Shown here: positions 4,366 to 5,515 of the stretch, one piece after another
How the letters are laid out: every line of letters begins with the position of its first letter
How positions within the stretch are numbered: the first letter of the stretch is position 1
Source: Thermoflexales bacterium
GTDB lineage: Bacteria; Chloroflexota; Anaerolineae; Fen-1058
Assembly: GCA_016931085.1 (NCBI GenBank)
Contig: JAFGFO010000018.1
Location: forward strand, 1-14,616
Reading direction: 5' to 3'
DNA length: 14,616 nt
The notes under the pieces: generated by a model
The model's database searches: none
The model's input: the letters and a program-made list of their open reading frames with translations, nothing else
What the model was told of the DNA's origin: nothing
Position numbers and translations under genes: made by a program

Positions 4366-4761
4366 TTAGCCGCCCGTCAGCGGCATCAAGCGGATGAACT
4401 TGGCCGTCGTCTGGGGTGCCAACGTGATCCGCTCGTCGAGCCGGGTGTAGCGCCGCCCGTTCACCAGGATCAAGAAGCGCCCGCTGGCAAAGGCTTGTTG
4501 CGCCTTGCGCACCTCGGTCTCCAACTCGGCCAGCTCTGACGCTCTCGTCTCGGCCGTCCCGATGTCGCGGTATTCACGGCCGGGGCGCCGGTCGAGCGTC
4601 TCCATGGCCACCAGTCGCCTGATCTCTTCCTCGACCTTGAGACGGATCAACTCTTGAACCGTCAGCGTCTCTTCGAGCGGGAATTCCAACACCAGGCGTT
4701 CGGGTGCTCCTAGCAACCCGCCTGGGATTTTGGTTTCGACTTCAAGCCGGCTGGTGTTCAT
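4366..4761 (-). CDS. Ubiquitin-like/MoaD-ThiS-like beta-grasp protein ending in Gly-Gly
   Basis: This 131-residue protein ends exactly at Gly130-Gly131 (IRLMPLTGG), the hallmark of MoaD, ThiS, TtuB, SAMPs and processed ubiquitin, whose terminal glycine is activated by an E1-like enzyme. The fold order also fits. Strands come at about 4-12 and 22-28 (ERLVLEFPLEE), then a helix LTVQELIRLKVEEEIRRL (33-50), a strand FLILVNGRRY (96-105) resembling the MoaD/ThiS ILVNG segment, a turn LDERITL, and a final strand before Gly-Gly. It is longer than MoaD or ThiS (about 65-90 residues) because of an insert at about 52-94 that is charged and probably helical. The ATG at 4761 follows AGGAGA by 7 bases and overlaps the response-regulator gene by 20 bases, so translation is probably coupled. 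It could be a sulfur carrier, a protein modifier, or a beta-grasp protein with a chance Gly-Gly. No E1, E2, JAB, MoaE or ThiF/ThiG gene is in the window. Confidence 0.6.
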   Translation of the reverse strand: MNTSRLEVETKIPGGLLGAPERLVLEFPLEETLTVQELIRLKVEEEIRRLVAMETLDRRPGREYRDIGTAETRASELAELETEVRKAQQAFASGRFLILVNGRRYTRLDERITLAPQTTAKFIRLMPLTGG

Positions 4762-5515
4762 GTGTGTGTCTCTCCTCAAGTTGTTGCAAGATGGTCTTGT
4801 CTTGAATGTCCTGGTCAGCCGAAAACATCACGATCGTGCTGAGAATCTGCTCGGTGGCCGCGTCGATGTCCTCGAAAGGCAGGCTCAGCCTGGGGCGGTA
4901 GCTCTGGTGGTGGGCTGGGACAATGCAGACCGGCTGCTCGGGCAGGTAGATGACCCCGCCGGTATCCAGTGACACCTCGTAGCAGCCTCTTTGCCCTTGA
5001 ATAAAGGCCGCGCGCCGCTGCTTTTCCAGCCTCACGTTGGGGAGGCAGGCGGCGATCTCGTCGGTCAATTGCGCCCGCCGCTGCAACATCGTTTGACGCC
5101 GGAGCTGTAGCCGCTTACGATCCTCTTCGGTCGGCTTGGGCCGGCAGTGAGCCTCCAACACGCGCTCGATGGCCGTCAATAGCTCGCGCGGGCCAAAGGG
5201 CTTGGTCAGGTAACCGTCTACGCCGGCGATCTGCAGTCCCACGATCTTGTCGACGCTTTGGGCGCGGCAGGTGAGGATGAGCACGGGTATATCGTGCAAG
5301 ATTTCGTGCGATTTGATCAGGCGGTAAAAATCCCAGCCGTCTATGTCGGGTCGCATGATATCCTGCGTGAATAGATCGATCGGCTCGCTGCACAGGATAG
5401 ACAGTGCCTCGTGGCTGTCTGAAGTGCGCACGTGCTCGTAGCCGGCTCGCTCCAGGATCAGCCCGATCAGCTCCAGGATCGCCGTATCATCATCCAGGCT
5501 CAAAATCCGCGTCAT
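4742..5515 (-). CDS. Response regulator with REC domain and unrecognised C-terminal domain
   Basis: Residues 1-122 of 257 are a complete receiver domain. The acidic pocket is Asp8-Asp9-Asp10, the phosphoacceptor is Asp52 in FTQDIMRPDIDGW, the switch Thr is Thr82 in VLILTC, and the Lys is Lys105 in LTKPFGP. Residues 128-172 are charged and helical, perhaps a coiled coil. Residues 175-247 form a separate domain (CYEVSLDTGGVIYLPEQPVC, then PAHHQSYRPRLSLPFEDID and a helix TEQILSTIVMFSADQDIQD) that I do not recognise. It has no helix-turn-helix, GGDEF, HD-GYP or CheB signature, so output is probably through protein contact. The ATG at 5515 was chosen over GTG at 5524 because GGGAG lies 8 bases before it. 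The 3' end overlaps the Gly-Gly protein gene. No histidine kinase is in the window. Confidence 0.88.
   Translation of the reverse strand: MTRILSLDDDTAILELIGLILERAGYEHVRTSDSHEALSILCSEPIDLFTQDIMRPDIDGWDFYRLIKSHEILHDIPVLILTCRAQSVDKIVGLQIAGVDGYLTKPFGPRELLTAIERVLEAHCRPKPTEEDRKRLQLRRQTMLQRRAQLTDEIAACLPNVRLEKQRRAAFIQGQRGCYEVSLDTGGVIYLPEQPVCIVPAHHQSYRPRLSLPFEDIDAATEQILSTIVMFSADQDIQDKTILQQLEERHTHEHQPA

What the first reader, a model, noticed from the sequence alone, without database searches (positions are those of the whole stretch)
4366..4761. A bacterial beta-grasp protein with a bare C-terminal Gly-Gly, coupled to a response regulator
The protein ends exactly at Gly-Gly, and its strand-helix-strand order and FLILVNGRRY segment resemble MoaD/ThiS/ubiquitin. 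Its length (131) and charged insert (about residues 52-94) differ from MoaD and ThiS. It overlaps a response-regulator gene by 20 bases instead of sitting beside molybdopterin or thiamine genes. This could be a new sulfur carrier or protein-modifier tied to two-component signalling. No E1, E2 or JAB gene is visible, which weakens the modifier idea.
Basis: partly seen in the sequence, partly recalled or inferred. Interest (0 to 1): 0.78.

Follow-up and report, generated by a model that had tools for sequence, protein, structure and literature searches.

The report
Ubiquitin-like partner of DUF7737 response regulator
A small bacterial protein folded like ubiquitin proves to be the regular partner of a little-studied protein domain, here attached to a signalling receiver; the Gly-Gly ending that made it look like a protein tag is kept in its own lineage but not across its wider family, so it is more likely a docking partner than a tag.

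Summary
In detail: 4366-4761 (-) encodes 131 aa ending in Gly-Gly and overlaps the upstream gene by 20 bases. A beta-grasp fold is supported at moderate strength (best solved match MoaD). The upstream protein is a receiver joined to DUF7737, a domain otherwise seen at the end of DUF4132 proteins. The 131-aa protein belongs to a broad family without a Pfam model, coded beside DUF4132/DUF7737 genes: 71 of 83 fetched loci carry it (ten of the twelve misses look like contig ends), as do 16 of 19 DUF7737-bearing genomes among 400 from one phylum. One genome fuses the two in one frame. Gly-Gly is invariant close to the window (27 of 27 intact tails) but not across the family: 36 of 71 readable tails differ or run on, splitting along a deep branch of the partner tree. 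No E1, E2 or JAB gene was found in the window. I read it as a non-covalent beta-grasp subunit docking, tail included, on DUF7737, here under phosphorelay control. One member, DR_A0165 of Deinococcus, is published and called Deinococcus-only. A modifier or sulfur-carrier role in the Gly-Gly branch is not excluded.

The parts
4366..4761 (-). beta-grasp (ubiquitin/MoaD-like) protein, 131 aa, C-terminus L-T-G-G
4369..4374 (-). codons of the terminal Gly-Gly (residues 130-131)
   Evidence: sequence; invariant in 27 of 27 intact close relatives, not in the wider family
4742..5515 (-). response regulator with DUF7737 as output domain, 257 aa (P0030)
5165..5506 (-). receiver domain (PF00072, E 6.4e-21); Asp8/Asp9, Asp52, Thr82, Lys105 present (numbering of P0030)
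   Evidence: residues read; the roles of these residues are recalled
4778..5083 (-). DUF7737 (PF24879, E 7.1e-19, 68.2 bits against a cut-off of 27)
4742..4761 (-). 20-base overlap of the two reading frames
4771..4777 (-). GAGGAGA, ribosome-binding-site-like, 9 bases before the ATG

Best explanation
The 131-aa protein is the dedicated small partner of the DUF7737 domain coded just upstream. Supported by results here: a beta-grasp-like fold, common descent with a family coded beside DUF4132/DUF7737 proteins in at least ten phyla (by record titles), and one natural fusion of the two. Inferred: it binds its partner without covalent attachment, and its conserved C-terminal R-L-x-x-L-x-G strand and tail dock into the partner, where a free Gly-Gly end suits one branch of the family and a longer end, often G-S/R-x-Trp, suits the other. 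In the window the partner is cut down to DUF7737 and carries a receiver, so phosphorylation at Asp52 by a sensor kinase not seen in the window would switch how DUF7737 and the beta-grasp protein assemble or what they bind. The biochemical output of DUF7737 and DUF4132 is unknown; a stress-response role is suggested by published Deinococcus data.
For: Adjacency: an iterated profile finds the protein in 72 of 84 stretches, that is in 71 of 83 fetched loci plus the window; for ten of the twelve misses the DUF4132 match lies too near a contig end for the upstream gene to be held (judged coordinates), two (L002, L063) are not cut. Of 68 loci with the small gene first, 55 have at most 50 bases to the first possible start of the large frame (counted, crude start choice). 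In 400 genomes of the phylum of G001, 19 hold DUF7737 over the cut-off, 17 hold the protein at E < 1e-6, 16 hold both (Fisher p 1.1e-24); 25 of 33 places of the protein lie within 6 kb of DUF7737 on the same strand, and 25 of 30 over-cut-off DUF7737 places have one. Fusion: L120:6086-9643 (-), 1185 aa, beta-grasp part first, DUF4132-DUF7737 last. DUF7737 is the shared element: the window's partner has no DUF4132 match, and 8 of the 14 partners have no DUF5724 match. E. coli YehI has no detected DUF7737 and no such neighbour. Tail: R124, L128 and G130 invariant in 77 aligned sequences, the last Gly not. Fold. Published: drA0165-drA0166 is a putative operon in the DdrO regulon and DRA0166 protein rises after mitomycin C (PMC8533742, passages).
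Against: No complex was predicted or measured; docking is inferred from gene pairing and one fusion. Gly-Gly is kept in 33 of 36 divergent members of one branch, more than a plain docking strand seems to need. DR_A0165 was reported to bind thioredoxin Trx1 (PMC9650054); whether DRA0166 was among its 157 co-purified proteins was not seen. The N-terminal strands of the model are of low confidence (block means 57-64), no Foldseek match reaches E 0.001, and the Foldseek rows also hold staphylococcal superantigen-like and Eap chains. Some DUF7737 proteins have no such neighbour (L138, L139; L063, L002). Eight of 33 places, seven of them at E 3e-5 or weaker, have no DUF7737 beside them.
Confidence: 0.6

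Rival explanations
1. It is a sulfur carrier or protein modifier: the free Gly-Gly is adenylated by an E1-like enzyme coded elsewhere (a housekeeping MoeB/ThiF) and attached to, or thiocarboxylated for, the DUF7737/DUF4132 partner or other proteins.
For: Gly-Gly at the very end in 27 of 27 intact close relatives, in 33 of 36 members of a deep branch of the partner tree and in 81 of the 120 proteins listed (tally); first fold match MoaD; low confidence at the tail (mean pLDDT 44 for residue 131, and 78 for 121-130).
Against: 36 of 71 readable tails are not GG; 10 of 120 end in GA, some run on past GG, one is internal in a fusion. No E1, E2 or JAB gene in the scanned window ORFs or as a recurrent neighbour cluster. 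No Pfam ThiS match for the window protein; 1 of 77 members at E 0.015.
Confidence: 0.14
2. It is a chaperone or inhibitor of the partner, for example holding a harmful or aggregation-prone DUF4132/DUF7737 protein inactive, with the receiver releasing it in the window's version.
For: Small gene usually first and tightly coupled to a large one; operon upregulated on loss of the DdrO repressor in Deinococcus (PMC8533742); deleting DR_A0165 raised antioxidant capacity, read by its authors as negative regulation (PMC9650054, passages).
Against: Order is reversed in the window, in L123 and in three Bacteroidota loci; no PADLOC model matches the five proteins tried; Pfam shows no toxin domain in the 16 partners scanned; the DR_A0165 deletion strain was studied alive with drA0166 still expressed; a fusion argues for a standing subunit.
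Confidence: 0.17
3. The terminal Gly-Gly and the fold resemblance are coincidental; the protein is just a short conserved adaptor with no mechanistic tie to ubiquitin-like proteins.
Against: Nearly all of the 50 rows shown by VIA are MoaD, ubiquitin, NEDD8, ISG15 or other chains of that fold class (the class of the p110alpha and U11 rows is recalled), and a separate published model of DR_A0165 gave MOCS2A and SAMP1 among others (PMC9650054).
Confidence: 0.08

Closest known systems
DR_A0165 / SEP068184 of Deinococcus radiodurans (PMC9650054)
   Same: Homologous (L001:6977-7381; hhalign E 1.9e-8 over the last 54 residues); MoaD-like model in print; gene 2 bases before a DUF5724-DUF4132-DUF7737 gene; ends L-A-G-G. 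The identity with P0037 rests on gene order (thioredoxin, small gene, DUF4132).
   Different: Partner is a 1626-aa DUF4132 protein without a receiver; the paper calls it Deinococcus-only, and the parts I read do not treat the DUF4132 pairing as a family trait.
MoaD / ThiS sulfur carriers
   Same: Predicted fold and bare Gly-Gly in this branch.
   Different: Extra helix, no Pfam ThiS match, no MoaE, ThiG or E1 neighbour in the window, Gly-Gly not invariant in the family.
TmoB and YukD (PMC1779556, section 15)
   Same: Works like: TmoB is a beta-grasp subunit bound to a larger enzyme; YukD was reported there not to be conjugated.
   Different: Different partners; here most of one branch keeps Gly-Gly. 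No direct comparison with either was run.
E. coli YehI (DUF4132 protein)
   Same: DUF4132 in the annotation.
   Different: No DUF7737 and no beta-grasp gene detected in that stretch; lies with MoxR, VWA and SWIM genes.

Membership tests
DUF7737-linked beta-grasp family (DR_A0165-like) | Profile homology to members beside DUF4132 genes | tested here: met
   hhalign of the close family against P0037 and P0039; window ORF found by the iterated profile at E 2.4e-19, the window itself being in the starting alignment
DUF7737-linked beta-grasp family (DR_A0165-like) | Gene adjacent to a DUF7737-domain protein | tested here: met
   DUF7737 in the overlapping gene, E 7.1e-19
MoaD/ThiS sulfur carriers | Match to the ThiS/MoaD sequence family | tested here: not met
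   0 Pfam families for the window protein at E 10; ThiS for 1 of 77 members at E 0.015
MoaD/ThiS sulfur carriers | Beta-grasp fold | tested here: met
MoaD/ThiS sulfur carriers | Invariant free Gly-Gly end | tested here: not met
   Met in 27 of 27 intact close relatives, but 36 of 71 readable tails of the family differ
MoaD/ThiS sulfur carriers | Thiocarboxylate formed by an E1-like enzyme | not testable with these tools
   needs mass spectrometry
Bacterial ubiquitin-like conjugation systems | E1, E2 or JAB genes in the neighbourhood | tested here: not met
   None in the window's scanned ORFs. For the family only ORF clustering was done, not a scan with E1 or JAB models
Response regulators | Receiver domain with phospho-acceptor Asp and acidic pocket | tested here: met
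   PF00072 E 6.4e-21; Asp8, Asp9, Asp52, Lys105; receiver chains fill the rows shown
Response regulators | Cognate histidine kinase nearby | tested here: inconclusive
   no kinase in the window's scanned ORFs, but the ORF at 2-346 runs off the window and orphan regulators are common (recalled)

The most novel reading that the evidence does not exclude
In the branch that keeps it (Cyanobacteriota, Chloroflexota, Actinomycetota, Armatimonadota, Deinococcus, most Planctomycetota), the Gly-Gly end is chemically active: a bacterial ubiquitin-like modifier or sulfur carrier that uses a general E1-like enzyme and whose dedicated target or ligase is the DUF7737/DUF4132 protein. In the window this would be switched by a phosphorelay. 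The other branch, with tails such as G-x-x-Trp, would have lost the chemistry and kept the docking.
Probability: 0.12. Interest if true: 0.9.

Novelty: new variant of a known kind. Interest (0 to 1): 0.62.

Why it matters
It gives a protein family without a Pfam model, coded in at least ten phyla, a fold, a fixed partner and a testable interface, and gives DUF7737 a role as the likely docking domain. It corrects the published view that DR_A0165 is Deinococcus-only. The split of tail types (bare Gly-Gly against longer ends such as Gly-x-x-Trp) on one partner tree is a natural experiment on whether a Gly-Gly end means conjugation. The window's receiver-DUF7737 protein shows the module wired to a phosphorelay.

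Tried and rejected
Chance Gly-Gly: rejected by 27 of 27 intact close relatives. Family libraries: no Pfam or NCBIfam family for the window protein or for P0037 and P0039; sub-threshold scraps only among the 77 aligned members. Known defence system: no PADLOC match for five proteins. Viral origin: no confirmed relative in viral contigs. Sequence relatives among solved structures: none convincing for the small protein or for DUF4132-DUF7737. The plasmid search with the small protein gave one chance-level match (E 5). The 50 rows shown of the structure search with the regulator model are receiver matches, so the DUF7737 fold stays unknown. A first genome-contig scan with the close family found nothing, probably because its two word patterns were too specific. 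The plasmid search with DUF7737 opened the route to the wider family. DUF7737 rang in 0 of the 14 named control genomes. Weak matches whose frames end in ...RLYQR (six genomes, E 4e-5 to 5e-4) have no DUF7737 nearby and are kept out of the family in the text, though they are in the counts of 24 and 33. The L058 frame stops early and its tail was not counted; the tree leaves out L031 (motif not found by my script), L058 and the window. Among fetched relatives two further odd tails were seen: one ends V-G-D, and the small frame in L135 has no Gly end.

Literature searches behind 'not described': DUF4132 (3 papers), DUF7737 (0), DUF5724 (0), DRA0165/DRA0166 (28 papers, 20 listed, of which two concern the Deinococcus genes and the other 18 are unrelated by title), SEP068184 (2, the second a review seen in the listing only), two combined beta-grasp searches, and yehI/molR/WGR. 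Papers looked into: PMC8533742, PMC7824862, PMC7159879, PMC8195603 (passages only), PMC9650054 (passages and sections 33, 34), PMC1779556 (outline and section 15), PMC1949818 (a term search with no occurrence). Subscription journals are mostly not held.

Full report
What is there. The window encodes on its minus strand a 257-aa response regulator (4742-5515) and, overlapping it by 20 bases, a 131-aa protein (4366-4761) that stops directly after Gly-Gly. GAGGAGA stands 9 bases before the ATG, and codon-position GC is that of a coding frame. The regulator is a receiver (PF00072, E 6.4e-21) followed by DUF7737 (PF24879, E 7.1e-19). No E1, E2, JAB or histidine kinase was found in the window ORFs that I scanned. 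Those with Pfam matches are a TPR/zinc-ribbon protein, a zinc-ribbon protein, an S58 peptidase, a sortase, a methyltransferase, a family 3 glycosyl hydrolase and oligopeptide ABC transporter parts; the ORF at 2-346 is cut by the window's end, so a kinase beyond it is not excluded.

Close relatives. A search of 5.8 billion proteins gave 29 rows including the window's own. Of these, 27 have an intact C-terminus, and all 27 end in R-L-M-P-L-x-G-G. Besides the window's, five proteins carry both a receiver and DUF7737 (P0031, P0033-P0036).

The family behind it. DUF7737 is otherwise the last domain of DUF5724-DUF4132-DUF7737 proteins. In Deinococcus and Bacteroides the gene just before such a protein encodes a remote relative of the window protein (hhalign E 1.9e-8 and 9.9e-6). 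Iterated profile search found the small protein in 72 of 84 stretches: 71 of 83 loci and the window. From match positions I judge that ten of the twelve misses lack the upstream stretch; L002 and L063 do not, and a sensitive search found no relative in them. Of 68 loci with the small gene first, 55 have at most 50 bases to the first possible start of the large frame; in three Bacteroidota loci the small gene comes second (crude start choice; a few large values are to a wrong or broken frame). Clustering of neighbouring ORFs gave the pair as the two commonest families with a gene-like frame; by coordinates most of the other large clusters look like shadow frames of the large gene, and one is a cluster of ABC-type ATPases in 27 loci.

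Independent count. In 400 genomes of the phylum of G001 (the genome in which L005, an Anaerolineae MAG contig, lies), 19 have DUF7737 over the family cut-off and 5 more below it. With the 77-row profile, 24 match at E <= 1e-3, of which 17 at E < 1e-6. Sixteen genomes have both (Fisher p 1.1e-24; with all 24 counted, 4.4e-20). By place, 25 of 33 matches of the small protein lie within 6 kb of DUF7737, all on the same strand, and 25 of 30 over-cut-off DUF7737 places have one. Partners vary in size and front part; DUF7737 is what they share. In L120 the two are one 1185-aa frame, with the tail reading P-L-I-G-D and running on. DUF7737 proteins without the partner also exist (L138, L139). In the E. 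coli YehI stretch neither DUF7737 nor the small protein is detected.

The Gly-Gly question. Of 71 readable tails (window included, L058 left out as cut short), 35 end in GG and 36 do not. Of the 120 listed proteins, the best of 488, in the last protein search, 81 end in GG, 10 in GA, 28 run on and 1 ends in RG (sums of the printed tally). On a tree of the partner's last 430 residues for 69 loci, one side of a branch has 33 rows, none ending in GG; the other has 36 rows, 33 ending in GG and 3 in GA; three changes suffice (quick tree, root drawn at the midpoint only). Some members in the phylum of G001 continue as GGAP, GGA, GGSA or GGCR, and one ends V-G-D. The first Gly, and the Arg and Leu before it, are invariant in the 77-row alignment; the second Gly is not. 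So the end matters in both branches, but a free Gly-Gly is not what defines the family.

Mechanism. Shown by computation: fold class at moderate strength, gene pairing, one fusion. Inferred: a non-covalent subunit docking by its last strand and tail on DUF7737; in the window, control by phosphorylation of Asp52. Precedents: MoaD, whose tail enters its partner (recalled), and TmoB and YukD, beta-grasp proteins described as a bound subunit and as not conjugated (PMC1779556, section 15).

What is published. D. radiodurans DR_A0165 (by gene order the P0037 of this report) was modelled as MoaD-like, called Deinococcus-only and reported to bind thioredoxin, and its deletion raised antioxidant capacity (PMC9650054: passages and sections 33 and 34). 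Another study puts drA0165-drA0166 in the DdrO regulon as a putative operon and shows IrrE-dependent rise of DRA0166 after mitomycin C (PMC8533742: passages); the two papers disagree on the regulatory motif. I found no paper that names the family, its spread or the receiver-DUF7737 form, within the searches listed under Tried and rejected.

Verdict. It is a new variant of a known kind: a beta-grasp partner protein, not named as a family in what I searched, with a receiver-linked form.

Noticed in passing
L120:6086-9643 (-): Natural fusion of the beta-grasp protein with its DUF4132-DUF7737 partner in one 1185-aa frame.
   Followed up: partly
L063:6536-11287 and 11309-16327 (+): Two tandem large genes with DUF7737 in a Capnocytophaga genome with no detectable beta-grasp partner.
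   Followed up: partly
L001:6421-7381 (+): Two Deinococcus papers disagree on a damage-response motif before drA0165: one reports it at -83, the other reports none.
   Followed up: no
L134:9201-9695 (-) and five like places: Weakly similar proteins ending ...RLYQR with no Gly-Gly and no DUF7737 nearby; possibly a further distant branch or chance matches.
   Followed up: no
L137:8280-18945 (+): E. coli K-12 yehI (DUF4132) lies with yehL (MoxR), yehM, yehP (VWA) and yehQ (SWIM): a different context of DUF4132.
   Followed up: no
G361, G343, G282: Several distinct beta-grasp/DUF7737 pairs in one genome, up to three, with different partner sizes.
   Followed up: no
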